Positions 37,514 through 63,731 of a DNA stretch of 64,000 bases are shown piece after piece (within the stretch, counting starts at the first letter, position 1; each line of letters begins with the position of its first letter). The notes under the pieces were generated by a model. It did no database searches. It was given only the letters and a program-made list of their open reading frames with translations, and had not been told where the DNA came from. A program made the position numbers and the translations under genes. The DNA comes from a virus. The DNA is taken from IMG/VR virus record IMGVR_UViG_3300048837_000795, positions 1 through 64,000 of that record; one strand, written 5' to 3'.

Positions 37514-38284
37514 TCACACCCCAAACGCCGCGCGAGTCTGCTGGAAGAGATTGTCGATCGCGGCCAACGGCACCGCTGCGGCGGACACAAAACACAGCCC
37601 GGCATAACCGTTGAACGCCGCGGCTGCGCTGATTCCGCCCACCAGCAACGCAGCGGATGAGTCCTTGATACTGGCCGGCACGCCAGCCACAACAGTGGTT
37701 CGAACCCCGTTGCAGGAGACCGACAACTGGCTTGACGGGATAAACCGCCCGACCGTAAAGCTCCACGCTCCCTCCGCCACGCAGCCGGCCGCGGAGGACG
37801 CAAACACCGCCGCGCCGGCGGTGCCGTCTGGCGAAACGCCCATGATCGCCTCGCCCGTGGTTGCTACTTGCAGCGAGTAGCTGCGCTGGTCGCCGGACGC
37901 GTCCCATTTCGACATAGCTACCTGCGCAGCCAGCAAGCTGTTATGTTTGAACCACCCCCCCAGGGTCAGCGTTCCGGTAATATCCAGCCCGGCATCATCC
38001 GCCCGTGAGAAATACTGCGTGGTGCCGTTCATGCTGGCGTAGGGTACCAGCCCCTCCGTGCTGCGCGGCGCGCCGCCGTTATTAGTCAGGGTCCTGCCCT
38101 GCCCCGACAGGTCGATGGCGTTGCCCGATTCGTTGATCGAGGAAAACGACCAGAGCGCGCGCAGGCCCGGCAGCATGAGCATGGTCGGGATTGCATTTGC
38201 AATGGCGAACTGCGGCTCGTTGCGGCCCTGAAAATCAATTGACATCAAGTTGGCCAGCTCGGCGTTATGTTTTTGGGTTGTCAT
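37514..38284 (-). CDS. LamG-like (concanavalin fold) tail protein, 256 aa
   Basis: The start at 38284 overlaps the upstream stop as ATGA; the frame to 38488 is not used. After a helical head, a jelly-roll lectin domain is visible (GTLTLGGWFKHNSLLAAQVA, SYSLQVATTGEAIMGVSPDG, AWSFTVGRF). It probably decorates the tail tip and binds host sugars. Two other LamG proteins lie at 53.0-54.7 and 57.7-58.5 kb. Confidence 0.7.
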   Translation of the reverse strand: MTTQKHNAELANLMSIDFQGRNEPQFAIANAIPTMLMLPGLRALWSFSSINESGNAIDLSGQGRTLTNNGGAPRSTEGLVPYASMNGTTQYFSRADDAGLDITGTLTLGGWFKHNSLLAAQVAMSKWDASGDQRSYSLQVATTGEAIMGVSPDGTAGAAVFASSAAGCVAEGAWSFTVGRFIPSSQLSVSCNGVRTTVVAGVPASIKDSSAALLVGGISAAAAFNGYAGLCFVSAAAVPLAAIDNLFQQTRAAFGV

Positions 38285-39423
38285 GCAGCACCTCCACCCA
38301 GACCCAACTGCGCCAATATCTGCGGCAGCCGGCGCACCTTGCCGCCGTTGATCGATATACCGTAGGGCGCGGTGAAATTGACCGATTCGATAAAGACGCT
38401 GCGCGGATCGCGGCGCAGCTTCGCGCCCGAGGCGCTGCCGGGTAGGAAGTCGGGGTAAAACAGCCACTGGCCGGGCCGCACGTTCCACGGATTGACCACG
38501 TCGCCGTGATAAACGCTCAGCAGGCTTTCCGCCAGGCTGTATTCGTAGGCATACGTGGTCGGAGCCGGCGCGTAGACCGGCTCGCGGTTCTCGTAGACCC
38601 CAAAGGTATAGCGGTTGTAAGCAACGTCGCCCAGCGCTACCAATCCCTTGATCACATCCAGCCCCATACGGTCGTTGTTTTCAAGCAGCGGCACGAGGAT
38701 GGTATTACTGGCAATCGAGCGGGCATTGACTGCCAGCCAGCCGTTTGGCTCGGCATTCAGCACGGCCAGAATCTTGTCACTCAGCGCCCCGGTGCCGGTC
38801 GCGGCCGAGTTATAAACCGCCTTTTTGAGGATTTCACCATAGCCGGCGCATTTGACGGTCACCGACGCCACGCCGCCTTCCAGCGACAGCGTCTCGGTGG
38901 TTTCCGGCCAGGCGTTCTCTTCCAGGAAGGTCGCCACAATATTGGCGACAGTCGCCGCGGCGCTCGCCGCATCAACGTTTGAGGTCGAGTAGACCCCGCC
39001 CATAATGCCGTACAGCGCCTGTGAGTCGAGCTGATTGGTAAAGGCGGGCTTTTCGCCGGCGGCAACGGGAGCCGGCGTCACGGTCGTGTTGATTGTGGTG
39101 TAGAGCATGCGCAGATGGTTGACGATATCCAGCACCGGTCCGCGCTCGACAGAACGCCCGCCAATGGTCAGCGCCACCGCGTTGACAAAACCCTGCCATA
39201 CCACCGCGCCGGCTTCGTCCCGCGTGGTTACTTCGCGCATCAGCCCGTTCTCGTACCAATCCTCCAGGTAACCCAGCGGTCCGGTCAGGCTGAAATTGGC
39301 GCTTTTGAACCCGCCAAACACCTCGCTGGCGTGGTCGTAGCCGGTGACAATATCCGCCAGCGTTTCCAGCGGAGCCGCGCCCTTTAAGCGCGGCTCGCTC
39401 ACGTCGATCGATATACCTATCAT
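38281..39423 (-). CDS. Tail-tip (baseplate hub-like) protein, 380 aa
   Basis: Position after the tape measure and distal-tail-like genes, plus NFSLTGPLGYLEDWYENGLM, an EVTTRDEAGAVVWQGFV stretch and a C-terminal LRRDPRSVFIESVNFTAPYG, fit the hub/Tal family of siphovirus tails. No enzymatic motif is seen. It overlaps neighbours by 4 bp. Confidence 0.6.
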   Translation of the reverse strand: MIGISIDVSEPRLKGAAPLETLADIVTGYDHASEVFGGFKSANFSLTGPLGYLEDWYENGLMREVTTRDEAGAVVWQGFVNAVALTIGGRSVERGPVLDIVNHLRMLYTTINTTVTPAPVAAGEKPAFTNQLDSQALYGIMGGVYSTSNVDAASAAATVANIVATFLEENAWPETTETLSLEGGVASVTVKCAGYGEILKKAVYNSAATGTGALSDKILAVLNAEPNGWLAVNARSIASNTILVPLLENNDRMGLDVIKGLVALGDVAYNRYTFGVYENREPVYAPAPTTYAYEYSLAESLLSVYHGDVVNPWNVRPGQWLFYPDFLPGSASGAKLRRDPRSVFIESVNFTAPYGISINGGKVRRLPQILAQLGLGGGAA

Positions 39424-41918
39424 GAGTCGCCTCGCATGGACAAATAACGGAAGACCGCCTCGGTCTCCAGCTTGATCACCTGCGACGGCGAGGGCCAGGT
39501 TTCCAGGATCTGGATGCCAATCAATTGATCTTTATTGGGCGCCAGAGACAGCGGAGCCACGGTCACCGCCGAAAAGCCGCCGTCGGCAATCACCCCGCCA
39601 GTCGTGTCCAACACGCCGAATGTGCGGTGCATGCGCCGCGGGTAAATCGCGTCAACCAGGGCGTGTTTGGTATTGCTGATCTCGCTGACCGTGCCGGCCG
39701 GGGTTATCTCTACCACCGACTCGTCGATCGGGATCAGGATCAGGTCGTAAAGCCGCACAACGCTGCCACTAGACCCCGCTGCGCCGTCCAGCCGGATATG
39801 GAATTGGATTTCATCTATCGTTATGGCGCTGCCAATCTCCAGGCTGGGTATCTGCACCTTGCCCAGGTCGAGCAGGCTAAACTGGGTAGCGTGCACCAGG
39901 TTGATATACGCCTTCGGCCCGGCCACCTGTGATGTCGAAACGGTGAGCAGCCTGGCCGAAACGGTGCTGACGGCGCCGGCGGTCTGCTTGACCCGCAGGA
40001 AGGCCCGGAACACTCCCTTGTAGTGGTTGGCCAGCGGCGCGGTCATCTTGATATAAAACGTGGCCGTCGGGTTGATCACCGGAACGGTCCACTGCACCGC
40101 GCGCCCGGTCGGGGCTGCTCCGTCAGTAACCCATGCCTGGGAGGCCACAAATGAGGCGAACATGCTAATCTCGGAATTGTCCTGGATATCCGACAGGTTG
40201 ATATAGGGCGTGAAGCGCGTTCCTCGAGACAGTGTACGCGACCACAAGATAAAGCGCCTGTTGAGTCCCCCAACGCTCATCATTGAAAAGCGGTGCCGCA
40301 GTAGAGCGCGGATATCGCCGCCAACCAGCCCGCCGCGCACGTTGACGGACGGCCAGCTGGCCGCGTAGATCTCCCGGTTTTGCTGGCGCGGAACCGGAAC
40401 GCCGCCGGTCACCGCTGTGACCCGCAGGCGTACCCAGTAGCCGTACGCGCCGTTGATAGTAATCTTGCCCCAGTCGCTGGGAGCCTCCCAGGCCATCCCG
40501 CACACACCCGCGCCGCCCAACTGGCCCTCGGTGGTCGGCGCGCTCGAGAGGCGCGTCTCGTCTTCGTAAGCCGCGATCTGCGTCCAGGTGGCCGGCGAGT
40601 ATTCCAGCACCATCGCCAGGTAGCCCGTGCCGGCCTGCACCAGATCAAAGACCAGCGAGCGGAACGTGCCGCTGATCACCGCCGCGTCATCCACGCCGAA
40701 ATAGATGCAGTCATTCACGGCCGGCGCGGCCGGCAGCAAATTGACCGGTTTGGCCGCGCCCAGCAAATTGGCCGAGAAAGTGCCGGCCGAGTCGTCGTAA
40801 TGATAAATATCCGAGATCTGGCCCTGCTGCGCCTGGCCAAAGTAGGACTCGCGCTCACATATCTCTGTCCGCCCGAGCGTTACCGCTGTTTCCCGGCGCA
40901 GCACCACGTAATCAAAGCGCGCCTCCTGACCGTTGGTATTGGGACATTGCAGCACCAGGCCGATGGTATTGCAGCCAGGTGGGACGGAAATGCGCTGGCT
41001 GAGCGTGCGGAAAGGGACGGTCGCAACGTCCGGGATTGGGGTAGGAGAAAGCGAATTGATCGGAATGATATCCCCGCCAGATGTGATGTTGGCGACTCGG
41101 AAACGCGGCGCGTCGACAAAGCTGGGTGACAGCGTCCGGCTGGCGTAGAAAAATAAGCGGTAATTGGCCCCGGCCGTGACGGCAATATTCTGCTGGATGT
41201 TTGTGTTGCGGTTTGGCCCGGCCGTCAGCAAGGCCCGCTTTGTTCCGTGCGGTCCGCCCGCCTCGGATACGATGGACCCGTCGCTGGCCGTCTCTGTCCA
41301 GTTGGCAAACACATCCGCCCCACCCCCGCCGGCCGTCTCGAATGAGCCGTTCAGCACCAGATTCGCCCCGTAGGTGTAGGCCGCGCCATTGGCCGACAAT
41401 GGCAAACATGCGCCCACGTCCGGAATCTCGGACAGCCAGTGCCCGCGCTCAAGGCTAAGTGGCCAGTCACTCATCATGGGCAGCGGGCCGCCAAATTCCG
41501 GGGCATACGGGTCGCCGTCGGACGGCGCGCGGTAATCGTGGATGATGGCATAGCGGCTGTATGTTTCGCGGCTGGAACGCGCCTCGATCCACACCGGGCC
41601 ATACAGCGCCGGATCTGTCCAGTAGCCGCGCCCCTGCTCGAGTAGCGCCCGCAGCGCCCGTGTATCCTCGATGACCGCCTCCTGGGTCAGTCCGTTCACA
41701 TCCAGGGTCAGCGCTTCGATCACCGTCGCCCATCTGCGCATGACCATTCTCCGCCCATCAGCCAGCGGCGAGTCGCTCCATACCCCGCCGCCTTTTGGTT
41801 CGGCAATAGCCGGACGCATGCTGTTCAAGTGAAAGCCGTGCTCGCCCGCGAGTTTGATCAGATTGATAGACGTTGTGCCGTCCGTAATTTTGAGTATTGC
41901 GTAATTGAGCTCTGGCAT
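39420..41918 (-). CDS. Distal-tail-like protein with carbohydrate-binding insert, 832 aa
   Basis: The N terminus (AILKITDGTTSINLIKLA) and early ALTLDVNGLTQEAVIEDTRA resemble distal tail (Dit-like) proteins. A CBM-type module starts with NLVLNGSFETAGGG and continues through beta strands. Several further beta-sandwich segments follow. Such evolved Dit proteins carry sugar-binding inserts that help host recognition. A motif A element lies 9 bp upstream of the start. Confidence 0.65.
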   Translation of the reverse strand: MPELNYAILKITDGTTSINLIKLAGEHGFHLNSMRPAIAEPKGGGVWSDSPLADGRRMVMRRWATVIEALTLDVNGLTQEAVIEDTRALRALLEQGRGYWTDPALYGPVWIEARSSRETYSRYAIIHDYRAPSDGDPYAPEFGGPLPMMSDWPLSLERGHWLSEIPDVGACLPLSANGAAYTYGANLVLNGSFETAGGGGADVFANWTETASDGSIVSEAGGPHGTKRALLTAGPNRNTNIQQNIAVTAGANYRLFFYASRTLSPSFVDAPRFRVANITSGGDIIPINSLSPTPIPDVATVPFRTLSQRISVPPGCNTIGLVLQCPNTNGQEARFDYVVLRRETAVTLGRTEICERESYFGQAQQGQISDIYHYDDSAGTFSANLLGAAKPVNLLPAAPAVNDCIYFGVDDAAVISGTFRSLVFDLVQAGTGYLAMVLEYSPATWTQIAAYEDETRLSSAPTTEGQLGGAGVCGMAWEAPSDWGKITINGAYGYWVRLRVTAVTGGVPVPRQQNREIYAASWPSVNVRGGLVGGDIRALLRHRFSMMSVGGLNRRFILWSRTLSRGTRFTPYINLSDIQDNSEISMFASFVASQAWVTDGAAPTGRAVQWTVPVINPTATFYIKMTAPLANHYKGVFRAFLRVKQTAGAVSTVSARLLTVSTSQVAGPKAYINLVHATQFSLLDLGKVQIPSLEIGSAITIDEIQFHIRLDGAAGSSGSVVRLYDLILIPIDESVVEITPAGTVSEISNTKHALVDAIYPRRMHRTFGVLDTTGGVIADGGFSAVTVAPLSLAPNKDQLIGIQILETWPSPSQVIKLETEAVFRYLSMRGDS

Positions 41919-41958: not shown

Positions 41959-44343
41959 TTATGCCTTTACTGCCCTGGCCACGACCTGCTCGATGCGTGC
42001 CTCAAGCACGGAGAAATCGAGGGCGCTGTTGATGTTATTGCCGCCAAAGTTGAAGGCGTTGTTGATGGTGGTCGAGCGCGTCATCGCCGGGGTGGAAGGC
42101 ATGGAGCTGAATGAGCCTGCACTGCCGCGCACACCCGCGCCCTGACTGCCCGCGCCTGGGGATTTGGCATTGTGTACCACCACGCCGTCTACCAGGTAGG
42201 TATGGTCGGGATGGTCGACTTCGATGTTATAGATATCAAACTCGCCCGGGTAGGCTTCTACAAACGCGACAAAGGCCGGCGTTTTGGAAACCAGCATCTC
42301 GCCGGGCGCAAGATCGCATGCTTCGACCCAGCCGCGGGCAAATGTTTTAAATCTGTGATTGGGTGAGCAGTGATACTGCCGTCCGTCATCGATATACACG
42401 CTGACCAGGTCGCTGCGCACCGAATGGATGGTCTTTGCCACCAGCGCCGCGACTTGCTCGCCGTCATCGCGCATCAACAAAACTTTGTCGCCCACGCGCA
42501 GATCAGCAATCATGGTCATGCCGCCCGGCACATTGACCGGGGTTGACGCCACAAAGCAGGTGCCAGGCGGGTCAGATGCCGGGCCTGAGCGCGCGCCGTT
42601 GATCAGCCGCACCAAATTGTTAAACCACTTGGTCAGGTCCTGGAGTTTGCCCGACGCCCACTCGAAGGCCCGCCCTAAAACGTCGCGGATGGTTTTGGCG
42701 GCGTCCTCGATCAGCGGGCCAAATGTCTGCGAGAGCCAGTCGCCAAACCCGGTCAGCAGCGGGAACAGGGTCTCGCTGATAAACTTCCACACTTCGGTCA
42801 GCGCGGGTAACAGCGTCTCGGTCCAGACCTTACCCAATTCCTCCAGCGCCAGGCCAAACACCGCGCCGAGGAAATCGGTAAACGACTGGAAAAACGGGAA
42901 CAGCACCGTGGTCATCCATGTCCACACACGCTGGATTGCCGGCAGCAGCGTATCTTCCCAGAAGGCCCTGAGTGACTCGATAGCCAGCGGAATATTGGTC
43001 GCCAGCCAGTCCCACATGGTTTGGAAGAGCGGGAAGAGGTTGGCCTGGATCCACTCCCACACCGACATAATCGCCGGCAGTAATGTCTCTTCCCAGAAGC
43101 CTTTCAAAATCTCGATGGCCGCCGGCACGTTGACCGCCAGCCAGTTCCACAGCTGCTGTAAGGCCGGCCTTACCGTACCCTCCCAGAACTGGGTCAGGGC
43201 GTCGCGCATGCCCAAAAAGTTGTTTTCCCAGGCGTAGGCCAGCGCGGCCACGACCGCGGCGACCAGCAGCAGCACGCCGATCAGCGGCGCGGCAGCGGTG
43301 ACCATCGCTACGATCGCCGGGATGGCCGCGGCGATGGTGGTATAGGCCCATACTGCCACAGCCACGGCAATGGCCGCCAGCACCCCCACAATAATAGGCT
43401 TATTGGCCATCAGCCAGTTGAATCCGGCCTGGAGGATATTAAAGGCGATGGGCATGGCGGTAATAATCACGTTGGCAATGCGCGAGATAAGGCCGGCGAT
43501 TTGCGGCAATATCTCGCGCACCTTCGGCAGCGCTTTGCGGGCCAGCTCCATAAAACGTTTGGCCAGGTCCATCACTGCCGGCATAAGTTCTTTGCCAAGC
43601 TGCACAAACAGGCCCTGCCCGGCCATCTTCAAAAACTCAAGCTGTTTCTGCAGCTCGATCGACCCGTCAACAGTATCCCCGCTCAGCGACAGGCCCAATT
43701 CTTTGGCCATCGCGTCAGCCTCGGCAAAGCCGTCGGTGGTCAGCGCGCCTAACGTGTCGGTCAAATCTTTGCCCGACTTGCCAAACAGCTCAACCATCAG
43801 CTTGGTCTTTTCCAGCCCGTCCGGCATGAGCGCCAGTTTATCGGCCACGGCGGTGATGATATCGGTCGACGGTAGTATGTTGCCGTTCGCGTCGCGGAAA
43901 GCAATGCCCAGCTTATCCATTACCGCCCCGGTTGCGCCCAGCTCGCCCTTGCTGTCGACCAGCCCGCGGGTAAGGAAGGCCATCTGCCCGGTAATGCCCT
44001 CGACATTGCCGCCCACGCGCTGGATTGCCACGGCCAGCGCCGACGACTCTTCGGCCGACGTGCCCAGCACATCGCCAATGCTGTCGACCGTGCCGGCCCA
44101 GCCCATCATGGCCGGGATCGCCGCGAGCGCCGCGCCGGCCAGCGTGCCGACCGCCGCGGCGGCAGCGCCTAACGCCCCCATCACCACCGCCCCACCCACG
44201 CGGGACAAACCTTCGGTCATACGCGCGCCCGCGCTCTCAGTCTCATCCTTGCCGGTCTTTGTCGCGGCTAAGTATTCCCGCATACCAGCCAGGAAGTCCG
44301 CGTTTTTGAAAATAGCCTCAAGGCCGATCTGCTCTAAACCCAT
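41959..44343 (-). CDS. Tail tape measure protein with internal Hint domain, 794 aa
   Basis: The N-terminal third is Ala/Gly-rich helical (LSRVGGAVVMGALGAAAAAV). Central hydrophobic helices (IIVGVLAAIAVAVAVWAYTT, LIGVLLLVAAVVAALAYAW) are typical of tape measures. Trp-rich repeats (TLLPAIQRVWTWMTTVLFPF and relatives) follow. From Cys596 to Asn725 lies a Hint/intein-like domain. A short Ser/Asn-rich tail ends the protein. It sets tail length and aids DNA ejection. Start follows AAAGGACGGTAATC. Confidence 0.85.
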   Translation of the reverse strand: MGLEQIGLEAIFKNADFLAGMREYLAATKTGKDETESAGARMTEGLSRVGGAVVMGALGAAAAAVGTLAGAALAAIPAMMGWAGTVDSIGDVLGTSAEESSALAVAIQRVGGNVEGITGQMAFLTRGLVDSKGELGATGAVMDKLGIAFRDANGNILPSTDIITAVADKLALMPDGLEKTKLMVELFGKSGKDLTDTLGALTTDGFAEADAMAKELGLSLSGDTVDGSIELQKQLEFLKMAGQGLFVQLGKELMPAVMDLAKRFMELARKALPKVREILPQIAGLISRIANVIITAMPIAFNILQAGFNWLMANKPIIVGVLAAIAVAVAVWAYTTIAAAIPAIVAMVTAAAPLIGVLLLVAAVVAALAYAWENNFLGMRDALTQFWEGTVRPALQQLWNWLAVNVPAAIEILKGFWEETLLPAIMSVWEWIQANLFPLFQTMWDWLATNIPLAIESLRAFWEDTLLPAIQRVWTWMTTVLFPFFQSFTDFLGAVFGLALEELGKVWTETLLPALTEVWKFISETLFPLLTGFGDWLSQTFGPLIEDAAKTIRDVLGRAFEWASGKLQDLTKWFNNLVRLINGARSGPASDPPGTCFVASTPVNVPGGMTMIADLRVGDKVLLMRDDGEQVAALVAKTIHSVRSDLVSVYIDDGRQYHCSPNHRFKTFARGWVEACDLAPGEMLVSKTPAFVAFVEAYPGEFDIYNIEVDHPDHTYLVDGVVVHNAKSPGAGSQGAGVRGSAGSFSSMPSTPAMTRSTTINNAFNFGGNNINSALDFSVLEARIEQVVARAVKA
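42169..42558 (-). other. Hint (intein-like / BIL) domain inside the tape measure protein
   Basis: 130 residues. They begin with CFVASTPVNVPGGM (N1 Cys), carry HCSPNHRF (TxxH-like block B), and end YLVDGVVVHN (His-Asn terminus). The residue after Asn is Ala, not Ser, Thr or Cys, so normal splicing is unlikely. Bacterial intein-like domains of this type cleave or splice weakly. No homing endonuclease is inserted. Confidence 0.75.
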
Positions 44344-44345
44344 GA

Positions 44346-44531
44346 TTACCGTCCTTTCTTACCACGTTTGGATGTGGCCTCTTCCGACTTGCGCTCCTGT
44401 TCCTGCGCTTCCCAGCTGCGCATCCTGGAAACAGTCGAGGAGTAGGCCATCATTACCGCTAAGTCATCTTCGGGCAGGCACAGATCAAATTCGCTTGGCA
44501 GCCGGTTCCAGTCGTGGCAGGTATCGATCAT
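44346..44531 (-). CDS. Downstream tail assembly chaperone frame (frameshift product part), at least 61 codons
   Basis: This frame is open upstream through the end of the 44566-45168 gene (readable as LKEGDWSYQAYFAM before MIDTCHDW), in the +1 (equivalently -2) frame. That is the usual arrangement of tail chaperone G/GT pairs. WNRLPSEFDLCLPEDD and a basic tail (TSKRGKKGR) fit the T domain. It is probably made mainly as a frameshift extension rather than from its own ATG. Confidence 0.65.
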   Translation of the reverse strand: MIDTCHDWNRLPSEFDLCLPEDDLAVMMAYSSTVSRMRSWEAQEQERKSEEATSKRGKKGR

Positions 44532-44565: not shown

Positions 44566-45168
44566 TTAAGCGGAAGGCTTAAGACCTTCTGCCGCTTTTT
44601 CCATTTGACGCCGAAACATATCTTGCGCGGCGGCCCGAGCCTCCTCGCTCACGTTGGTTACCGTGGAAGTCACGGAGAAAATCAGCTCGGTAATATCGTC
44701 GGTCGAGCGGATAACCCAGGTACGACCAAACAGCAATAATCGCTCGCCCTCATCCTCGGGGATGGTGATTTTCAGCGCCTTCATGCGCATTTTCCAGCGA
44801 GGGTAATCGTTGGGCTCAGCATCGATGCACAGATAGCACGAGGCCATAAATCGCTCGGTGAAATCGGCCTGGAATGCGGTTTCGGTCTTTTCGTAGGCGT
44901 CCCACATCGCTATGAGTTCCGGCGTGTCGGCGTCTTCGCGGCTGTCCAGCTCGATGCGCTGCACTTCGCCGGCGGCAGTGGTGGCCTCGTAGTACGGCTT
45001 TGTTGGCAGCTCGCGCCCCGCCTCTAGCCACTCCGACTCGACCTGCTGTTGGATGACCTGCTCTTCGAGCGGGTTGAGCGGGAAAAGCTTAAATGTTTCT
45101 TTTTGTGAATTGGTAAAGGCGAATTCTTTCTTCGCCGGTTTTGCCACTTTTGGTTTCGACTGTTTCAT
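44566..45168 (-). CDS. Tail assembly chaperone, 200 aa
   Basis: It lies between tail tube and tape measure genes. It has a basic N terminus, ETFKLFPLNPLEEQVIQQQV, a central helical body and an end at LKPSA, where the overlapping +1 frame takes over. This is the position and size of G-type chaperones. RBS is GGGGAGTATTGGC. Confidence 0.7.
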   Translation of the reverse strand: MKQSKPKVAKPAKKEFAFTNSQKETFKLFPLNPLEEQVIQQQVESEWLEAGRELPTKPYYEATTAAGEVQRIELDSREDADTPELIAMWDAYEKTETAFQADFTERFMASCYLCIDAEPNDYPRWKMRMKALKITIPEDEGERLLLFGRTWVIRSTDDITELIFSVTSTVTNVSEEARAAAQDMFRRQMEKAAEGLKPSA

Positions 45169-45287: not shown

Positions 45288-46769
45288 TTAGTTTTCGTTG
45301 ATCTTGAGCAGCAGCCCGGTGCCGCCGTTGGCCTCGCCAACCGCGTAGCAGCTGTTTTCCGTCAGCGCCTTGACCGCGTTCAGCCCGCTGTTGAGCGGGG
45401 TGGTCAGCGCTAACCAGTTAGCCCCACCGTCAATGGTGCGCAGCACGGTGCCGACCGGAGCCGCGGTGTTGGAGGCCATAAACCCAACGAAGTCATTGAC
45501 GTAATCGATATCGCGCACCTGTCCGATGCCCGAGCCTGTCCAACCAGTGATGCCGACCCAGGTCGTGCCGAAATCGTTGGACTGGTAGAGCAGGCCTGTC
45601 GCGGTGCCGACCTGCACGCGCCGGTCGTTGAAGACAAAGACGCAGTTGAGGCCAGGTGTACCGGTCACTACCGCGCCGGCGGTCCAGGTCTCGCCGCCGT
45701 CGCGGGTCACCGCGGTCACGCCAGAAGCTGCCACGGCCACGCCGTATTTTTCGTCGGCAAAATGCACGTGGCTGTATGCGCCGGCAGTGATCACGCCGCT
45801 TTCAACCGCGCGCCAGGTCTCGCCGCCGTCAGTCGATTTGTAGATATAACCAGCCTTGCCGGCCAGCAAAATCATGTCACGCGATAAGGCAAACAGGCAG
45901 CCGCCTGCCGAAGCGCCGTGGCCAGCCGCCGCGCCGCCAATCGATTTCAGCGTCCAGGATGCCCCGGCGTTGTCCGAGTATGCGACCTGACCCTGACCGC
46001 CCGCCGGGCCTTCCTTACCGGCTAAATATCGCCGGCCTGTTTTGCCAATCGGGAAGGCGGTGATGGCCATCGTGTTGATCCCTGCCCCAAACGGGTCCGC
46101 AGCGCCGGCGGCCCAGGTCGCACCGTCCGAGGTGAACAGAATATTGCCGGTGGCGGGTCCTGCCGCGCTGTCAGCCGCGATAACAGCCACGTCGCCAGGA
46201 TCGACCGCCTGGCCGCAGTCGCCCAAACACTGCCCGGCCGCGTCGGCCCAGATATCATTCAGCGACTGGGTTTCGGACAGCGCCACGCGCCCCACCGAAA
46301 CCTCCACCGCCTCGATCAGCGGAGGCCAGGCCTGCACGCTCATGGCGTGGGTAGCGTCGTTGGCCTCATTGTGATGCACGCGGCCTGCGTAGGTGATCGA
46401 GTCGATGTTGATGTGATGCAGCACCTGCGCCCGCTCGTAGTTGAGCGGGTTGCTTTTATTGCTGCAGGTCGACAGCATGATGTACAGCGCGCCGTTGGAG
46501 CAGCGCGCCTTTTCGAGATAGTCGCGGGTTTTCTTGCTCATGCCGGTAATGGTGGTGGTCACCGGCTCAGGCGGGGCTTTGCGCTGTCCGATCACGTCCC
46601 AGCCAGAGCGGTCGGCGCGAAAAGCTTGATTGATTTCAATTTCCCCCTGGGGGGCCTCAATATCATCGACGTCGTGGCAGCCGAGCCATTTGAGCTCAGT
46701 TCCCGGCCCATCGGGCTGGAAGAAAACTGACCCGTCGCCGGAATTGTATACATAATCACCAGTAGGCAT
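45288..46769 (-). CDS. Major tail tube protein fused to a six-bladed Asp-box beta-propeller, 493 aa
   Basis: The N-terminal 180 residues sit at the tail tube position and have tube-like features (KWLGCHDVDDIEAPQGEIEI, VTTTITGMSKKTRDYLEKAR). After it come six Asp boxes (S/T-x-D-x-G-x-T-W type) near residues 213, 265, 312, 355, 397 and 445, such as KSTDGGETWRAV and TRDGGETWTAG. This is a BNR/sialidase or Ycf48-type propeller. No sialidase active-site set is evident, so a binding role is likelier. If every tube subunit carries it, the whole tail is decorated. Confidence 0.75.
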   Translation of the reverse strand: MPTGDYVYNSGDGSVFFQPDGPGTELKWLGCHDVDDIEAPQGEIEINQAFRADRSGWDVIGQRKAPPEPVTTTITGMSKKTRDYLEKARCSNGALYIMLSTCSNKSNPLNYERAQVLHHINIDSITYAGRVHHNEANDATHAMSVQAWPPLIEAVEVSVGRVALSETQSLNDIWADAAGQCLGDCGQAVDPGDVAVIAADSAAGPATGNILFTSDGATWAAGAADPFGAGINTMAITAFPIGKTGRRYLAGKEGPAGGQGQVAYSDNAGASWTLKSIGGAAAGHGASAGGCLFALSRDMILLAGKAGYIYKSTDGGETWRAVESGVITAGAYSHVHFADEKYGVAVAASGVTAVTRDGGETWTAGAVVTGTPGLNCVFVFNDRRVQVGTATGLLYQSNDFGTTWVGITGWTGSGIGQVRDIDYVNDFVGFMASNTAAPVGTVLRTIDGGANWLALTTPLNSGLNAVKALTENSCYAVGEANGGTGLLLKINEN

Positions 46770-46771: not shown

Positions 46772-47149
46772 TTACGCTCCTTGATGCGCCGCTGTTTCCG
46801 CGGCATGGATCAGCGCCGCTAAATCGACGCCGTAAACAGACTGAATCGCGCCAAACGCCGCCGGCTGGTTGCGTTCCAGGTCGGCCAGCGTCCAGATACC
46901 GCGCACGCGCAGCGCATTGGCCAGCGATGCGCCGGTAGCGCTCAGCACGGCAATCGACTCCCAGGGCAGGCCGTAGGGTACGCCCATATCAAGATCGGTT
47001 TCGCTGGCCTGATCCTCGACAATTGCATCCGCCGGCACGATCACCCGGTATAACCCGACGCCGGCCTTGTCGTATTCGACCACGGCCGATTCGCCGCGCT
47101 GTTCTACCAGCCGGACACTGACCATGATTACCTCAGACTCTTCGCTCAT
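46772..47149 (-). CDS. Hypothetical tail/connector protein, 125 aa
   Basis: The start at 47149 follows AGGAAAAAGCAA; the ATG at 47164 supplies that RBS. It sits in the tail-terminator position. Beta strands come first (MVSVRLVEQRGESAVVEYDK), and the C-terminal helices (LANALRVRGIWTLADLERNQ) look like a helix-hairpin-helix. Role inferred from place only. Confidence 0.55.
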   Translation of the reverse strand: MSEESEVIMVSVRLVEQRGESAVVEYDKAGVGLYRVIVPADAIVEDQASETDLDMGVPYGLPWESIAVLSATGASLANALRVRGIWTLADLERNQPAAFGAIQSVYGVDLAALIHAAETAAHQGA

Positions 47150-47160
47150 TTGCTTTTTCC

Positions 47161-47676
47161 TCATGTGCCGTGCCCGGAGGCTTTCGCGGCGTTGCGCATG
47201 GCCGCGCTCATCCAGCGCTCAAACAGCGGCTGGTTATCCTTGATAATCAGGTCCTTCCATTCCCGCGCCGCGGTGCCGGGGTGGTTGACCTCGTCTTTCG
47301 AGGCCCATCCGCCCGACCTGGATGCGCGGCTGGTAAAGGTGGTGCCGGGTTTGGAGCCTGCCGAATACCCGGTCTGGAAGTGCAGGCGCTTGCCGGCCTT
47401 CGCGCGGATCTTATGCGGCTTGGTGCCGTAGTTGAGCCAGTTCCATTTCTCGCGGCCGTGCGCGCTGCCGGCGAGCCGGATCTGGATGGTGATGCCTGCG
47501 CCGTCCATCTTCAGCACGGGGGTGAATTTTGGCTTGTCGCCCTGCCAGCCGGCGGTGGTTTTCTCGAAGTCTTTGACCAGGAACGGCGCGAATTTCTCCA
47601 TCTCGCCGCGCAATGTGCGCATCACGGCGTCGGAGTTGAATTCCTTTGGAACGATCGCCCGTACCTGTCCTGGCAT
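47161..47676 (-). CDS. HK97 gp10-like head-tail joining protein, 171 aa
   Basis: LNYGTKPHKIRAKAGKRLHF and NHPGTAAREWKDLIIK are typical of the HK97-gp10 family, found between connector and tail tube genes. TAATG coupling links it to the 47676-47864 gene. Confidence 0.8.
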   Translation of the reverse strand: MPGQVRAIVPKEFNSDAVMRTLRGEMEKFAPFLVKDFEKTTAGWQGDKPKFTPVLKMDGAGITIQIRLAGSAHGREKWNWLNYGTKPHKIRAKAGKRLHFQTGYSAGSKPGTTFTSRASRSGGWASKDEVNHPGTAAREWKDLIIKDNQPLFERWMSAAMRNAAKASGHGT

Positions 47677-48421: not shown

Positions 48422-49096
48422 TTAGGCCGCGGCAGTCACGACCGAAGCGGGTGATAACGGCTTGTAGACCATGTACCACTTGATGTTCCCGGTCTGCGGA
48501 GCGCTTGCCAACGCGGCAACCGTGCCAGGCGACAGGATCAGATCGGTTTCCTCGACAGTGACCGGGTCAGACAGTACAAGACCCAGCGCGGTCGAAGGAG
48601 TAAAGACCGATGTTGCGCCCACGTTGCGGTAGAAGGTGCCAACCGCATCGTTGTCAATCGCAACCGGTGCGGCGCTGAGCGTCACGGTAGCGGCCGGCGC
48701 GACGGTAGCGATTTGCAAACTCATATTGGCCGCCCCGCCGATGACAGTTGTCACCAGGCCGAAAATCTTGGCTTTCACCGGCCCGCCGGAAACGACGAAA
48801 ATGGGATCGCCCACGCCGGCAGCGTTGAGCACCGCGCCGTCCGACTTTTCGACGCAGCGCTCCGCCAGGGCAGGCACGTATGACTGCAAGAATTCCAGCC
48901 GCTCCATAACCGAGCCGTCCGCGTTGGCGGCAACCAGGTTAGAGGCAAAGGCATTGTTCGCGCTGTTCGCGCCAATCGCGCCGAGCACGGAGAGAGCTGA
49001 GTCCGTGACGGTTGTTCCGTCCGTCCCCAGCGCGGCTTCCGGGTCGCCGACGTCGGTGGGGTCTATGCCCCAGTTAATAGGTTTGAGAGGAAACAT
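48422..49096 (-). CDS. Hypothetical virion protein, 224 aa
   Basis: Ala/Val/Thr-rich with many beta strands (AATVTLSAAPVAIDNDAVGT) after a helical head. This composition fits a capsid decoration or head fibre protein. Adjacent genes abut. No family is recognised. Confidence 0.55.
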   Translation of the reverse strand: MFPLKPINWGIDPTDVGDPEAALGTDGTTVTDSALSVLGAIGANSANNAFASNLVAANADGSVMERLEFLQSYVPALAERCVEKSDGAVLNAAGVGDPIFVVSGGPVKAKIFGLVTTVIGGAANMSLQIATVAPAATVTLSAAPVAIDNDAVGTFYRNVGATSVFTPSTALGLVLSDPVTVEETDLILSPGTVAALASAPQTGNIKWYMVYKPLSPASVVTAAA

Positions 49097-49422: not shown

Positions 49423-50571
49423 TTAAGGAGTCGTGCCGCTGGAGTAGTAGATCCCGTTGGGGTCGATGACTCCGACCCAGGCCGCGTCATCCCATCCGCC
49501 GATGACGTCGTTGACCATATACTCGATATCGCCAGTCTCGAAAGAGCCCATCAGGAACGCGGCCGGCGCGCTGCCGGAGATAACGCTGATGTTCGAGGTC
49601 TTCTGGGCAACCAGCGGGGCCTCCCAGCCGGTAAGGCGGGCCACGGGCAGGGCCTGGATTTCGTTCGGGTCAGCGAACAGATACCAGGGGATATTCGGCG
49701 CGGCGGTGCCAATGTAGGGGTCGACCCGGTAACCGCGGATGAACTGCGGGATAACGTTTTTGTCGTTGAGTGCCGAGCCGGCAGCCAGCGTCGAGCCCAG
49801 AATGACCTGCGCCTGCATTTCCAGGATCTTAGGAATTACCAGCCAGATCCCGTTGATCGTGATCGGGTTGCCGGCAGCGTCCAGGCGCGAATTCATGGCG
49901 TTGATACCGATCGCCAGGTTGGCCGAGGTAAGGCGGCCGGTGCCGGCATACGCAGCACCCAAAGCGATCAGCGCGGCCTGCGTCAGGGCATTGTCGTACT
50001 GCGCCGAAACAAAGCTGTCCTCGAAGCGGCGTACCGCGTTGAGCATGCGCATCGGTGTCTGGCGGATCTTGCCCAGATCGTCATTCATAACGGCGCGCCA
50101 GGAAACGTCAAACTGGCGGGCGAATTCTTCCACGCCGTAGGAAACAACCGAGTCGGAGATGTGCGTGGCCTTCGCCTCCGCTTTCTCGCGCCGGCGGTGG
50201 AGCGTGCCGGGCTCGGTCATGCGGAACCGGTCCACATCCCGGAAGTCGGGCGCGCTGTCGGGGAAGGTGTAATCGCGCCACGATCCACCCTGATAGGCGT
50301 AATCCTTGAGGAACGCCCGACTGATCGCATCGGCGAAGTACACGTCAAAATGCGCGGTTGTCATGGCTTCACGGAACTGGCCGATATCCATGTGTTTGTA
50401 CGTGTTTTGCAACTCGATCATGGCGTGGAATTCAGCCTGACCGGACTCGCCCAACCGTTCCGCTGCCCACTGGGGGACGGCGGAGGCGCGAGACAGCGCT
50501 TCGATCTGATTTGCATCGAAACCGCGCTCGGCCAGAGCGATTGATTTAACCCACTGCATTACCTGATACAT
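49423..50571 (-). CDS. Major capsid protein, 382 aa
   Basis: HK97-fold size and place, after the protease-scaffold and decoration genes. Features include a helical N arm, SVVSYGVEEFARQFDVSWRA (Mu gpT-like), a spine around ALTQAALIALGAAYAG, and a C-terminal VVIGGWDDAAWVG-like end. No long scaffolding delta domain is seen, consistent with the separate scaffold region at 51.1 kb. Confidence 0.8.
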   Translation of the reverse strand: MYQVMQWVKSIALAERGFDANQIEALSRASAVPQWAAERLGESGQAEFHAMIELQNTYKHMDIGQFREAMTTAHFDVYFADAISRAFLKDYAYQGGSWRDYTFPDSAPDFRDVDRFRMTEPGTLHRRREKAEAKATHISDSVVSYGVEEFARQFDVSWRAVMNDDLGKIRQTPMRMLNAVRRFEDSFVSAQYDNALTQAALIALGAAYAGTGRLTSANLAIGINAMNSRLDAAGNPITINGIWLVIPKILEMQAQVILGSTLAAGSALNDKNVIPQFIRGYRVDPYIGTAAPNIPWYLFADPNEIQALPVARLTGWEAPLVAQKTSNISVISGSAPAAFLMGSFETGDIEYMVNDVIGGWDDAAWVGVIDPNGIYYSSGTTP

Positions 50572-51111: not shown

Positions 51112-52629
51112 TTACCTCCCAATACCAAAGCGAGTATTGATCTTGTCCATCGTCTCCTCGATCTGCGACCGCGAGACTGGACGTGTGCTATCGGGCGCGG
51201 CTGCGCTTTCGCCCAGTCCAAATGGACGCCCGGAACCGCTGATTTCTTTCAGCCGCCGCACCTCGGCTGCGACCGCGGCGCTCAAGGCCGCTTCGTTCTC
51301 CCACCTGTTGAAAGCCAGCGTCAAGAGCGATTCGGCCGGCAGCCGGGTCTTGGATAACACCGCGCGCACCTCGGCCTCACCCAAAACCGGGTCAGGCGCG
51401 GGAGGCTCTTCCACGGGGGCCGGCGCTTCAACCTGGTCTGCGTCAGCGGCCGGGGGAGTCTCTTCCCCGCTCTCGGGCTGCTCGACCTGCACGGCGGTCT
51501 GGTCTTCCTCGCGGATCGTGACTTCCGCGGTCGGCTCCGCCTCGGTGGCAGGCACCGTCTCCTCGGTCTGCGCGTCGCTTTCAGCCAGCGCGAGCGCTTT
51601 ACCGCCTGCCCCGGCCCTGGTTACCCAGTCGACGCTGGCAACGGCAACGATTGACTCGACCACCTTGCCCTTGCGCCCATCCCGCTCGAAGCCTGGCCGG
51701 GCTTTGCCGTCGGCTAAGATCGAGCATTCCAGGCTTTCCAGCATGCCGGCTTTGGCGCGGTTGCGGGCCGCCTCGGCAAAGTCGGGGTCGAACACCACCA
51801 CGCGGGCAATCGGCGCGCCCTGCTCGGTAAAGCCGACAATGCGCTTGATCTGTGAGACCTCGCTGCGCACGTTCTTCTCCGACTGCACGTGATCGGTGGC
51901 GTACATTTTCGCGCCCTCAAACACTTTTGCATCGCGCCTGAGCATATCCGCCGGGTAGTAATGGTTGTCTCTGTTATTGCCCCACCCAGGCCGGATAATT
52001 TGCACGTCCATTTCCAGCGGCCCGCGCGGATTGGTCACCGCGTCGCCCTCGGCCTCGACCAGCGCGATGGCCGGCGCGAACGATTCAGTAAACGACTCGG
52101 CCTCACCGCCCATCACGCTGGCGTCTTCGTCCTGACCGGTCAGGACGTCGCCAACCACCTGCACAAATTCATCGAAGAGCGTCTGCGCCGCGGCGATTTT
52201 GTCGGGGGCGTCGCTCCAAAAGAAGATATTGTTGAGCATGCTTTGAAACTGGCCCACACGCTCGCGCATGTTCTCAGCCACTTCGCGGGCCGCGTTGGCC
52301 TGGTCGAGCTGGGTAAAGGTGATCACGCTGGACGGCACATAGTCACCGTAGTAATCTCCTTCCTCGATATCTGATTCCTTCGCCCCAGCTACGCCGCGAT
52401 GACCCTGCTCCTGGCCGGCCTCCTTCTCCAGCTCTGCCCATGTCTTTTTGAGCGAGCTGCTGAAAGTTTCGACCTGCTTGCGCAGCGCCTCTGGCAAAGT
52501 CTTGTTGGCCAGCAAGCTGGCCAGCTCGCGCGATAACCTGCGCACGTTGGCCTTGATGGTTGCCGCCTCAGCTACGGGCGCGGCGTCGTTTTCCCACAAA
52601 ACAACATCTTCAATTATGGTTTCTGGCAT
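51112..52629 (-). CDS. Prohead protease fused to scaffold-like C terminus, 505 aa
   Basis: Central region has RPGWGNNRDNHYYPADMLRR, MYATDHVQSEKN (His in DH) and GMLESLECSILADG (Ser candidate), a pattern of herpes/Mu-type prohead proteases. About 100 residues of Glu/Pro/Ala-rich linker follow, then a helical C terminus (ESLLTLAFNRWENEAALSAA), the usual scaffold layout. It also has a long helical N-terminal region. It should self-process and shape the procapsid. Confidence 0.7.
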   Translation of the reverse strand: MPETIIEDVVLWENDAAPVAEAATIKANVRRLSRELASLLANKTLPEALRKQVETFSSSLKKTWAELEKEAGQEQGHRGVAGAKESDIEEGDYYGDYVPSSVITFTQLDQANAAREVAENMRERVGQFQSMLNNIFFWSDAPDKIAAAQTLFDEFVQVVGDVLTGQDEDASVMGGEAESFTESFAPAIALVEAEGDAVTNPRGPLEMDVQIIRPGWGNNRDNHYYPADMLRRDAKVFEGAKMYATDHVQSEKNVRSEVSQIKRIVGFTEQGAPIARVVVFDPDFAEAARNRAKAGMLESLECSILADGKARPGFERDGRKGKVVESIVAVASVDWVTRAGAGGKALALAESDAQTEETVPATEAEPTAEVTIREEDQTAVQVEQPESGEETPPAADADQVEAPAPVEEPPAPDPVLGEAEVRAVLSKTRLPAESLLTLAFNRWENEAALSAAVAAEVRRLKEISGSGRPFGLGESAAAPDSTRPVSRSQIEETMDKINTRFGIGR

Positions 52630-53046: not shown

Positions 53047-54723
53047 CTATGCCTCGCTTTCCACGAATGTTAACGCTGTCTCGCGCGCCTCGTAAAACAT
53101 CAAGGCGGCCTGGGCCTCCTCGGAAATTGTCACACCGGTATTCCGGCTGACCCACCATTGCAGCCCGCCCAGACTCGCCCCGCTGCCAACGTGGCCCGCG
53201 CCCGTACCTGTAATGTCACCAATCGTGGCCGCGCCCTCACCCTGTACCAGAGTCGTCCCCGATGCACTGCCGGTAATATCCGCAATGGCAGCTGCGCCCT
53301 CGCCCTGCACGAGCACCGTTCCCGCGCCTGATCCGACGATATCGCCGATGGTGGCAGCGCCTTCCCCGGTGATCGGCGTAGAACCAACCACGCCCGTACC
53401 GGTGCCAATGATATTGGCAATCGTTGCGCTGCCAGATCCTTGCACCAGAGTCTTTCCTGCCCCGCTGCCGGTAATGTCGCCAATTGCAGCGCTACCTGCG
53501 CCCTGAATGAGAACCGTGCCGGCTCCTGTGCCGGTGATATCCGCGATGGTAGCAGCGCCCGAGCCGGTGATCGGCGACGATCCGACTGTTCCTGTGCCTG
53601 ATCCGGTAATATCGTCGACGGCAGCACTTCCCGCGCCTTGTACCAGTACGGTGCCGGCACCCGAACCGGTCAGGTCGGCAATGGTCGCGCTGCCTGCGCC
53701 TTGTACTAATACAGTACCTGCCGCGGACCCGGTAATATCAGCGATGGTAGAAGCACCTGCGCCCTGCACGAGAGTCTTGCCAGTGCTAGCGCCGGTTATG
53801 TCGCCGACCGTAGATGTCCCGGCTCCCTGCACCAACACCGTTCCCGCGCCAGAGACGGTCACATCGCCGATGACAGCCGCGCCCGCGCCAGTGATGGGCG
53901 CAGGAGCCGGCGGAGGAACCAGCCAGGGCATCTGGCTGACCGGGATACGAAAAAGGTCGTATTGGGTTTGTGGCGCGTACATGTGCGCGGCCAGGCTGTC
54001 ACCAGGGTATTTTTTGTAGACGCGTAAATCAGACAGCGCGCCGCGAAAATTCCAGATTGTGCCGGTTCCGCCTGCAACATAGATCCCGCCAAATCTCGGA
54101 ACGCCGCCCGATGGAATACCAGTGGCCCCGGTGGCGTCTGCGGTGGTGTCACGCAGCACCCCATTTACCAACAGCCGCCATTCGCCGCCCTTCCAGCCGC
54201 CAAGCGCATGCGTCCACTTATTGGCCGCGATAGTGCTGTCATAAGTCCAGCTCGCTACCACGTGAGTCGCGCCTGCGTTCCACCGCCCGACCTTGATCTG
54301 CTTGACGCCCGAAACATCATCGAGCCACATGCCCCAACCCAATGCGAACGTTGAGGAAGCGCCGCCGCCGCCGATGGCAATGCCGTCATTTACGCCGCTC
54401 GGCAGCACCGTGGGGTAAATCCATGCGCTGATCGCAATTTCCCCGCTGATATTGAGGTTCGCCGGGGCGTTTGCAGTCAATTGACCGTATGGGGAGATTG
54501 ACGGCTCGTTGCTGTCGGGCAGATACAGGCCCCGCCGGCCATCTGCCTCCACCCATGACATAACTTCGGGATGCACCAGCTCGCCCTGGTTGCCGCTGAT
54601 TTTGTCGATGAAATGATTTTGAGAGATGGTGATCGACTCTTCACCCATTAACGGCAGCCAATACGCAAGATTGGCTGCTTGCGGGCTGAGGTAATTAGGG
54701 GTGATCGGTGAAAACCGGTTCAT
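53047..54723 (-). CDS. LamG domain plus glycine-rich tandem repeat adhesin, 558 aa
   Basis: An N-terminal LamG jelly roll (ISGEIAISAWIYPTVLPSGV, WRLLVNGVLRD) is followed by about eleven 21-residue repeats of the form QGAGSATIADITGSGAGTVL. The repeats may form a beta-solenoid or flexible stalk. A 55-residue C-terminal tail follows. It is likely a receptor-binding or capsid-surface fibre. Confidence 0.7.
   Translation of the reverse strand: MNRFSPITPNYLSPQAANLAYWLPLMGEESITISQNHFIDKISGNQGELVHPEVMSWVEADGRRGLYLPDSNEPSISPYGQLTANAPANLNISGEIAISAWIYPTVLPSGVNDGIAIGGGGASSTFALGWGMWLDDVSGVKQIKVGRWNAGATHVVASWTYDSTIAANKWTHALGGWKGGEWRLLVNGVLRDTTADATGATGIPSGGVPRFGGIYVAGGTGTIWNFRGALSDLRVYKKYPGDSLAAHMYAPQTQYDLFRIPVSQMPWLVPPPAPAPITGAGAAVIGDVTVSGAGTVLVQGAGTSTVGDITGASTGKTLVQGAGASTIADITGSAAGTVLVQGAGSATIADLTGSGAGTVLVQGAGSAAVDDITGSGTGTVGSSPITGSGAATIADITGTGAGTVLIQGAGSAAIGDITGSGAGKTLVQGSGSATIANIIGTGTGVVGSTPITGEGAATIGDIVGSGAGTVLVQGEGAAAIADITGSASGTTLVQGEGAATIGDITGTGAGHVGSGASLGGLQWWVSRNTGVTISEEAQAALMFYEARETALTFVESEA
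53185..53905 (-). repeat. Eleven 63-bp (some 72-bp) coding repeats
   Basis: Units encode QGAG-SATIADITGSGAG-TVLV variants. Third-base divergence between units is high, so the array is old or selected at protein level. Two units carry a 3-residue insertion (GSSPI or GSTPI). Confidence 0.75.
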
Positions 54724-57700: not shown

Positions 57701-58480
57701 CTAGTGAAAATTTGCGTAATCACTTGCTACCTCCGCGATGGTCGCCGCCCGGTTGAGCAGAACCACATGAGCGATATACCCGTCCCATACGTTTGTACCG
57801 CTGGTAGAGTGGTTGCCAATAACGGTGTTAATAGCCGCTGGTTTGGTCGCTCCCCACGCGCCGTTTGCCGCCTTATCAGTATCGACTTGCGCACCGTTGA
57901 TAAAGCCGCGAAAAGCATTTCCAGCCACGTCCCAAGTCAGCGCAAGGCGCAGCCAGCCCGAAACATTGTAGGCGGGCGCGGCGATCAATACACTCGCTGT
58001 GGAGGTCACGCCCCCCGCGACACGCTGCAACCAGAGTTGATTAACGGTGGTTGTCTTGCGTATTCGCACAAAGGTGGTGGTCGTATTGGCGGCGATGTTG
58101 AACAGGTTGCGGTTTGTCACGCCAGCCCACACGTCCGGACTGAGGGGCTTCATCCACAAAAACAGCGATCCTGCATCACCGTTGAACGCATCCCGCAGGC
58201 TGACGGTGTACCAGTCAATCACAGAGGTGGAGGCTGGCACAAACAGTGCGGCGGTTTTACCATCCCCAATACCGGCATCTCCCAAAGTTACATTAGAGTA
58301 TGACCCGTTGCGACTGTTCCCGCTGATGTCCTCAGCAGTCGTACTGCCTGCCGCATCCCACAAAGGCAGGTAAGCGAGGATCGACGTGCCAAACAACGCC
58401 TTGACCTTTTCGGCGTATGGTGGTGCCCCGCCCCCTCCCTGCCCCAGCCGCCTGACCCTGCTCAATCGTTGCATCCTCAT
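57701..58480 (-). CDS. LamG-like protein, 259 aa
   Basis: Signature LamG segments: ILAYLPLWDAAGSTTAEDIS, AGSLFLWMKPLSPDVWAGVT and GWLRLALTWDVAGNAFRGFI. Probably a sugar-binding accessory to the spike just downstream. A 55-bp gap with no signal separates it from the spike gene. Confidence 0.7.
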   Translation of the reverse strand: MRMQRLSRVRRLGQGGGGAPPYAEKVKALFGTSILAYLPLWDAAGSTTAEDISGNSRNGSYSNVTLGDAGIGDGKTAALFVPASTSVIDWYTVSLRDAFNGDAGSLFLWMKPLSPDVWAGVTNRNLFNIAANTTTTFVRIRKTTTVNQLWLQRVAGGVTSTASVLIAAPAYNVSGWLRLALTWDVAGNAFRGFINGAQVDTDKAANGAWGATKPAAINTVIGNHSTSGTNVWDGYIAHVVLLNRAATIAEVASDYANFH

Positions 58481-61566: not shown

Positions 61567-61582
61567 TATATGTACCGTCCTT

Positions 61583-63103: not shown

Positions 63104-63731
63104 TCGGTCCTCCGTTCTTGCCCGTCATTTCGTGCTTGGAAATACGCCCGCCGGTCTCCTTCGCCAGATCATCCAGCACGCCGCGGTACTGGTCGAGAAT
63201 GGCGCTGTTGAAGCGGTAGATATCGACCCGCTGCGCGCCGGCGCCCTGGCCGATGGATTTGACATCGTGTACCCAGATATTGGGGTAGGTCGAGCCCACT
63301 GTGAATGAGGTTGCTTCGCCGGCATTTTCCGAATCGCTATCGGCTTGCGGGGTAGTGGTGATGATGATCGGCGCTTGAGCGTAGACCTGCGCTTCGAGAA
63401 AATCGGCCATCTTTTTGAGCTTGACCACCCGCTCATAATCCAGCGCCAGGCCCGAATCCATAATCTCTTTCGCCCGTAGATTCTTCTCTTCTTCCAGGCG
63501 TTTGTCGTACGTGGCGGCGCGGTCAGCCCAAGTGAACCTTGATGACCACTGCTCTAATGTCTGCTTTGAGTGTGTCGGCGCTGAATTTACTTGACTCGTA
63601 TTGAATTTCTGGATCAAAAGCACCAACGACCGTCCAGGCCCGAGACGCAAATAATCGTTGCAGGCCTGGACGGCTTTATTACTTTCTCCAGGTTGGCGTT
63701 CCCCCGCCAACGGCTCGACTCTGTCTGCCAT
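62952..63731 (-). CDS. terS: Terminase small subunit, 259 aa
   Basis: LRLGPGRSLVLLIQKF followed by LEQWSSRFTWADRAATYDKR is the usual start of this TerS family. A coiled coil and a Gly/Glu-rich tail follow. It selects phage DNA for packaging. The long overlap with terL is unusual. TAATG links it to the gene at 63731. Confidence 0.8.
   Translation of the reverse strand: MADRVEPLAGERQPGESNKAVQACNDYLRLGPGRSLVLLIQKFNTSQVNSAPTHSKQTLEQWSSRFTWADRAATYDKRLEEEKNLRAKEIMDSGLALDYERVVKLKKMADFLEAQVYAQAPIIITTTPQADSDSENAGEATSFTVGSTYPNIWVHDVKSIGQGAGAQRVDIYRFNSAILDQYRGVLDDLAKETGGRISKHEMTGKNGGPIELNDEQHDRTVSALAQALGALISTGGTGEANPLGSAESAAVDGAADESV

What the first reader, a model, noticed from the sequence alone, without database searches (positions are those of the whole stretch)
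45288..46769. Tail tube subunit fused to a six-bladed Asp-box propeller
Six Asp boxes at regular 40-50 residue spacing follow a tube-like N domain. If all tube subunits carry it, the tail would be covered with binding propellers, a rare virion design.
Basis: partly seen in the sequence, partly recalled or inferred. Interest (0 to 1): 0.75.

Follow-up and report, generated by a model that had tools for sequence, protein, structure and literature searches.

The report
Tail-tube protein fused to seven-bladed propeller
An uncultivated virus with a long flexible tail appears to build the tail from subunits that each carry a large propeller-shaped domain, which would coat the tail with roughly 150 possible binding modules, a kind of decoration we found no published example of.

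Summary
In detail: 45288-46769 (minus strand) is one 493-aa ORF with six Asp boxes after a ~160-aa N-terminal domain. A deep-alignment AlphaFold2 model (pLDDT 85.9, pTM 0.86) gives a beta-sandwich with one helix, in the strand order of phage tail-tube proteins, followed by a propeller. The propeller is seven-bladed, not six-bladed; blade 7 has no Asp box.

The gene fills the tail-tube slot, just before the chaperone and tape-measure genes. I found 19 complete homologous genes on 17 viral contigs, plus two truncated ones. All complete ones are fused. Two contigs carry two fused copies in tandem. No relative has a separate tube gene, a conserved frameshift site or a conserved internal start, so every subunit should carry the propeller.

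Two cysteine pairs look placed to staple the propeller's stalk to the tube domain (inference). The propeller is more conserved than the tube domain, which weakens a simple host-range arms-race reading.

Tail tubes with C-terminal Ig, FN3 or carbohydrate-binding domains are known. A propeller on every tube subunit was not found in the literature held here. The tube fold is not proven by superposition, and the function (weak multivalent adhesion or tail stabilisation) is inferred.

The parts
45288..46769 (-). gene of the tube-propeller fusion protein, 493 aa
   Evidence: one ORF without internal stop, strong SD, 19 complete homologous genes on 17 contigs including the window
46308..46769 (-). 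N-terminal tail-tube-like domain, residues 1 to about 154
   Evidence: predicted strands 13-18, 27-30, 44-50, 57-64, 70-75, helix 79-90, strands 94-99, 113-128, 140-155; same order as the minimal MTP fold in PMC8718954
46197..46307 (-). connecting segment, residues 155-191, with C181 and C185 (motif CxxxCG); strands 157-161 and 170-175 are included in the propeller alignment
   Evidence: C185 and C90 invariant in 20 rows, C181/C102 mostly present or lost together; propeller alignments begin at residues 154-158
45291..46196 (-). C-terminal seven-bladed Asp-box propeller, residues 192-493
   Evidence: Pfam PSII_BNR/BNR, Foldseek Ycf48 E 2e-12, alignment with seven-bladed propellers Z about 30
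41959..44343 (-). tape measure protein (794 aa, of which 130 aa are a Hint domain)
   Evidence: PHROG tape measure 8e-22, TIGR01760 above cut-off
44566..45168 (-). 200-aa protein in the tail-assembly chaperone position
   Evidence: position only; homologue in L003 (52% identity); no family match
44346..44531 (-). 61-aa protein in the second chaperone position
   Evidence: position; 66% identical homologue in L003
46772..47164 (-). 130-aa protein in the tail-terminator position of the related virus Blf4; not recognisable as a terminator
   Evidence: gene order against Blf4; no convincing family match
47161..47676 (-). 171-aa neck/tail-completion-like protein, by position
   Evidence: gene order against Blf4 and L031
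49423..50571 (-). major capsid protein, used to find relatives
   Evidence: PHROG major head/protease 4e-32; 29% identity to Blf4 over 94%

Best explanation
The gene encodes the only tail tube subunit of a long-tailed, non-contractile virus. Residues 1 to about 154 form the ring-building tube domain (inferred from gene slot and predicted strand order). Residues about 155-493 form a closed seven-bladed Asp-box propeller (shown by a confident model and fold matches), stapled to the tube domain by cysteine pairs C90-C185 and C102-C181 (inferred). Because the fusion is a single uninterrupted ORF with no recoding site, every subunit carries the propeller (inferred). Scaling tail length by the tape measure protein, and calibrating on the related virus Blf4 (820 aa, 125 nm), gives about 100-120 nm, 25-30 rings and 150-180 propellers per tail. 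The most likely role is a multivalent weak-binding array that helps the virion stay on or roll along the host surface before the tail tip finds its receptor, like the Ig, FN3 and carbohydrate-binding domains on other tail tubes (inferred). A tail-stabilising role may be combined with it. The confidence given is for the architecture; I give the adhesion role alone about 0.5.
For: Fusion in all 19 complete homologous genes on 17 contigs (down to 23% overall identity to the window protein) and in the truncated L002; L027 ends inside the N domain. All full members match PSII_BNR. Gene order MCP - small genes - neck - variable gene - this gene - chaperone-position gene - tape measure matches Blf4, whose gene in this slot is a recognised major tail protein. 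The nearest outgroup with the slot covered, L031, has a 192-aa propeller-free gene there between a recognised terminator and the tape measure. AF2 model pLDDT 85.9, pTM 0.86, with the strand-helix order of the minimal MTP fold. Propeller matched to seven-bladed folds. No conserved slippery site or internal start; SD-like sequence before each copy, including both tandem copies. C90/C185 invariant; C102/C181 absent together in three members. In lactococcal 936 phages a tube-borne carbohydrate-binding extension was shown to bind host cells (PMC6669499).
Against: No sequence or profile match of the N domain to any known tube, and no structural superposition on a solved tube, because propeller hits filled the lists. 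The propeller is more conserved than the tube domain in 95% of pairs, unlike a fast-evolving host-range determinant. No ligand, host or virion data. Cysteine pairing is inferred from conservation and covariation; distances could not be measured.
Confidence: 0.7

Rival explanations
1. Same tube-propeller architecture, but the propeller is mainly structural: propellers pack against each other or against the next ring and stiffen or protect the tail, with no specific ligand.
For: The propeller is more conserved than the tube domain (mean pairwise identity 36% against 27%); the cysteine pattern suggests rigid coupling. In lambda, removal of the tube's Ig domain lowers activity 100-fold although tails still form (PMC8718954).
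Against: Part of the conservation is the Asp-box Trp/Gly/Asp skeleton; tube-borne domains in T5 and YSD1 protrude loosely; no interface could be modelled.
Confidence: 0.3
2. The propeller is present only on a minority of subunits, because a short form is made by recoding or internal initiation or the propeller is cut off after assembly.
For: SPP1 and 936 phages make mixed tubes by programmed frameshift. The window alone has a weak TTTGGGC site at codon 181 and a GTG with an SD-like stretch at codon 159.
Against: Neither element is conserved in the homologues; the long form is the uninterrupted frame in all of them, the reverse of SPP1 and 936. Proteolysis cannot be tested here.
Confidence: 0.1
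3. The protein is not the tube but another tail or neck decoration; the real tube is an unrecognised gene such as the 130-aa protein at 46772-47164.
For: The N domain has no detectable match to known tubes. No tail terminator is recognisable in this clade, so the slot assignment is by position.
Against: The 130-aa neighbour is variable across relatives (92 aa and unlike in L010, 155 aa in L028) and has no tube-like sequence; nothing else between the neck genes and the tape measure is long enough. Predicted strand order fits a tube.
Confidence: 0.1
4. The propeller is a glycosidase (sialidase or xyloglucanase type) that digests host surface polysaccharide along the whole tail.
For: Asp-box propellers include sialidases and GH74; GH74 structures are among the Foldseek hits.
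Against: Beyond the Asp boxes, only R247, R384, D339 and D420 are charged and conserved in at least 75% of members: no arginine triad as in sialidases, and GH74 needs two propellers (family knowledge). The closest sequence and fold matches are Ycf48, a non-enzymatic binder.
Confidence: 0.06

Closest known systems
Lambda gpV, T5 pb6, YSD1_22: major tail proteins with a C-terminal Ig-like domain (PMC8718954)
   Same: single-gene tube domain followed by an outward C-terminal domain on every subunit; position before chaperone and tape measure genes
   Different: here the extra domain is a ~300-residue propeller instead of a ~90-residue Ig fold, and conserved cysteines seem to tie it to the tube domain
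SPP1 gp17.1* and lactococcal 936 MTP-TpeX
   Same: tube subunit carrying an FN3 or carbohydrate-binding module; TpeX was shown to bind host cells (PMC6669499)
   Different: there the long form comes from programmed frameshifting on a fraction of subunits; here no recoding, all subunits
Ycf48/HCF136 seven-bladed Asp-box propellers
   Same: closest sequence and fold match of the C-terminal domain
   Different: photosystem II assembly factor, not a virion protein; no shared N domain
Methanoculleus virus Blf4 tail module
   Same: related capsid protein (29%) and the same gene order; its tube slot holds a PHROG 'major tail protein with Ig-like domain'
   Different: 266-aa tube protein without a propeller and without sequence similarity to this one
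BFVD entry A0A1P8DJ39 (497 aa, no name in the tables at hand)
   Same: best full-length fold match, TM-score 0.73 both ways over 528 columns, 19% identity, so it may share the two-domain architecture
   Different: unannotated; its genome could not be identified here
phrog_8700 / outer capsid protein of Vibrio phages VP2, VP5 and phiVC8
   Same: Asp-box propeller of similar length
   Different: only the propeller part matches; annotated as a capsid protein. That phrog_8700 is this Vibrio protein is a guess from the matching regions

Membership tests
Phage major tail (tube) protein | gene between neck/terminator genes and chaperone/tape measure genes | tested here: met
   kept in every clade member whose contig covers the slot
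Phage major tail (tube) protein | beta-sandwich flanked by one helix, order beta1-2-(long loop)-3-alpha-4-5-6 (PMC8718954) | tested here: met
   secondary-structure order of a confident model only against the published description; not a superposition
Phage major tail (tube) protein | 3D superposition of the N domain on a solved tube | tested here: inconclusive
Phage major tail (tube) protein | sequence or profile match to a known tube family | tested here: inconclusive
   no match in PHROGs, PDB or hhalign against three tube sets; these sets were small and tube families often share no detectable sequence similarity
Phage major tail (tube) protein | hexameric rings, high copy number in the virion | not testable with these tools
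   needs mass spectrometry or cryo-EM
Asp-box (BNR) beta-propeller, Ycf48-like | repeated Asp boxes, about one per blade | tested here: met
   six boxes, PSII_BNR in all 19 full members
Asp-box (BNR) beta-propeller, Ycf48-like | seven-bladed closed ring | tested here: met
   (predicted model)
Asp-box sialidase / GH74 glycosidase | catalytic residues (arginine triad; or paired Asp between two propellers) | tested here: not met
   conserved non-Asp-box charged residues are only R247, R384, D339, D420 in 19 sequences
Frameshift-extended tube (SPP1 / TpeX type) | stop codon and conserved slippery site at the tube/extension junction | tested here: not met
   one ORF and no conserved slippery site in 19 genes

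The most novel reading that the evidence does not exclude
A clade of uncultivated long-tailed viruses whose tail is formed entirely of tube subunits each bearing a covalently stapled seven-bladed propeller, giving a dense propeller coat of about 150-180 copies along the tail; in some members two paralogous fused subunits build one tail. This would be a new class of tube decoration.
Probability: 0.65. Interest if true: 0.65.

Novelty: new variant of a known kind. Interest (0 to 1): 0.55.

Why it matters
Tail-tube decorations known so far are small Ig/FN3 domains or frameshift-made carbohydrate-binding extensions, and what they do is still open. A constitutive propeller on every subunit, conserved across a diverse clade and more conserved than the tube itself, is a clean system for asking whether tail decorations serve adhesion or tail mechanics. 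It would also be a natural self-assembling scaffold displaying a large propeller.

Tried and rejected
First AF2 job with three sequences gave a useless model (pLDDT 38.6); finding more relatives through the capsid protein fixed this. Direct searches of the phage collection with the window protein, its domains and four relatives found no relative (nothing, or only chance-level or propeller-only hits), and two scans of bacterial/archaeal genomes found none. Profile comparison of the N domain with three outgroup tube sets gave nothing. The structural searches list no solved tube; propellers fill the lists, so this is no evidence against a tube. Six blades: rejected. Separate tube gene: none found. 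Frameshift or internal start: window-only elements, not conserved. Truncated relatives (L008, L017, L029, L088, L101 and others) were checked to see whether any clade member lacks the fusion; their contigs end before the slot. C192/C469 (start of propeller / last blade) are both Cys or both not in all 19 full rows, but the tree needs only about two changes, so this is modest support for ring closure.

Full report
What is there. The window is 64 kb of a 65.4-kb uncultivated virus record. Its structural module runs on the minus strand: terminase small and large subunits (62952-63731, 61583-63103), portal (59377-61632), head maturation protease (51112-52629), major capsid protein (49423-50571), neck-region genes, the gene in question (45288-46769), two chaperone-position genes, the tape measure protein (41959-44343) and tip proteins. 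The gene is one 493-aa ORF with a strong ribosome-binding site. Six Asp boxes start at residues 213, 265, 312, 355, 397 and 445; shuffles of the protein average 0.067 strict boxes against five observed. Pfam BNR and PSII_BNR (Ycf48) exceed their gathering scores.

Relatives. Direct searches with the protein found only two relatives. Scanning with the capsid protein gave about 150 loci, and a profile of the N domain then found 19 complete genes of the family on 17 contigs, the window included (two of these contigs, L010 and L013, come from one metagenome and are close relatives), plus two truncated ones, L002 and L027. All complete ones are 483-526 aa, and all carry the same N domain followed by a propeller. 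The truncated clade members that were checked simply end before the slot. L012 and L025 have two fused copies in tandem, each with an SD-like sequence; L025's copies are 82% identical in the N domain and 64% in the propeller.

Slot. In Methanoculleus virus Blf4 (capsid protein 29% identical over 94%) the order is capsid - neck genes - terminator - tube (PHROG major tail protein with Ig-like domain) - chaperone - small gene - tape measure. The window and its relatives have the same order with the fusion gene in the tube position. L031 (capsid 43% identical over its alignable part), the nearest outgroup with the slot covered, has a 192-aa propeller-free gene between a recognised terminator and a 131-aa chaperone-position gene. 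The one neighbour that might compete, the 130-aa gene at 46772-47164, is variable in size and sequence among relatives.

Structure. With 20 sequences AlphaFold2 gave pLDDT 85.9 and pTM 0.86. The N domain has strands 13-18, 27-30, 44-50, 57-64, 70-75, helix 79-90, strand 94-99 and two long strands 113-128 and 140-155. This is the order beta1-beta2-loop-beta3-alpha-beta4-beta5-beta6 described for the minimal tail-tube fold (PMC8718954), with one or two extra short strands before the helix. The rest aligns with seven-bladed propellers (Z about 30, 2.4-2.6 A over 281-288 residues, model range beginning near residue 155), and Foldseek's best hits are Ycf48 (E 2e-12). So the propeller has seven blades, six with an Asp box. 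The tube assignment is therefore strong by slot and strand order, but not proven.

Cysteines. C90 (tube domain) and C185 (connector) are invariant in 20 rows; C102 and C181 are both absent in L020, L021 and L157 (only C102 is missing in one L012 copy); positions 192 and 469 are both Cys or both not in all 19 full rows, with about two changes on the tree. I infer disulfides or another tight contact that fix the propeller to the tube domain and close the ring. Distances were not measured.

All subunits or some? In SPP1 and the 936 phages the extended tube form is made by programmed frameshifting. Here the long form is the uninterrupted frame in every relative, and no slippery site or internal start near the junction is conserved. 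Hence all subunits should carry the propeller unless it is cut off later. Blf4's 820-aa tape measure goes with a 125-nm tail (PMC8540584). By the same ratio the window's 664-794 aa (without or with the Hint domain) give about 100-120 nm, or 25-30 rings of 4 nm (ring thickness from PMC8718954) and 150-180 propellers. This is an estimate.

Function. Tube-borne domains elsewhere are proposed or shown to bind cell-surface carbohydrate (PMC8718954, PMC6669499), which makes a weak multivalent adhesion array the most likely role. Against a simple host-range role, the propeller is more conserved than the tube domain in 95% of pairs (mean identity 36% against 27%), so a structural role remains a serious rival. 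Catalysis is unlikely: no conserved arginine triad and a single propeller only.

Novelty. The literature searches returned no description of a propeller on a tail tube protein, within the open-access library held. One unnamed BFVD entry, A0A1P8DJ39, matches the whole model (TM 0.73 both ways), so the architecture may already lie unannotated in public databases. I rate it a new variant of a known kind (decorated tail tubes).

Noticed in passing
41959-44343, minus strand, protein residues 596-725: A 130-aa Hint/intein-like domain interrupts the tape measure protein (CFVASTPV...VVVHN followed by Ala, not Cys/Ser/Thr), so it may be a bacterial intein-like or self-cleaving type; absent from the tape measure proteins of L003, L009, L030 and L100.
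   Followed up: partly
L012:14584-17586 and L025:14132-17197: Two tandem tube-propeller genes, each with its own SD-like sequence; the tail may contain two kinds of subunit.
   Followed up: partly
46772-47164: No recognisable tail terminator in this clade; the gene in that position is variable (92-155 aa) among relatives.
   Followed up: no
48422-49096 and relatives (e.g. L003:11467-12777, L008, L017, L029): Relatives carry one to three proteins of about 300-340 aa behind the capsid gene that look beta-helix-like by eye ('FYVDPNHANANDNNDGTDP...'); the window keeps only a 224-aa protein matching the C-terminal part of L003's 436-aa copy.
   Followed up: no
53047-54723, 57701-58480, 37514-38488, 55933-57645, minus strand: Three LamG/concanavalin-like proteins and a pectate-lyase-like beta-helix protein in the virion gene region; 53047-54723 also has a run of Gly/Ala-rich repeats.
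   Followed up: no
39420-41918, minus strand, residues 185-260: The large protein after the tape measure, in the distal-tail position, carries a CBM_4_9-like carbohydrate-binding insertion (E 1.7e-4, below the Pfam cut-off).
   Followed up: no
L003:16846-19230: The tape measure protein of the relative L003 holds several near-identical units of about 45 aa ('FWTTVLLPAILSVWAWVQGTLFPLLAQLWAWLQ...'), a possible way of changing tail length.
   Followed up: no
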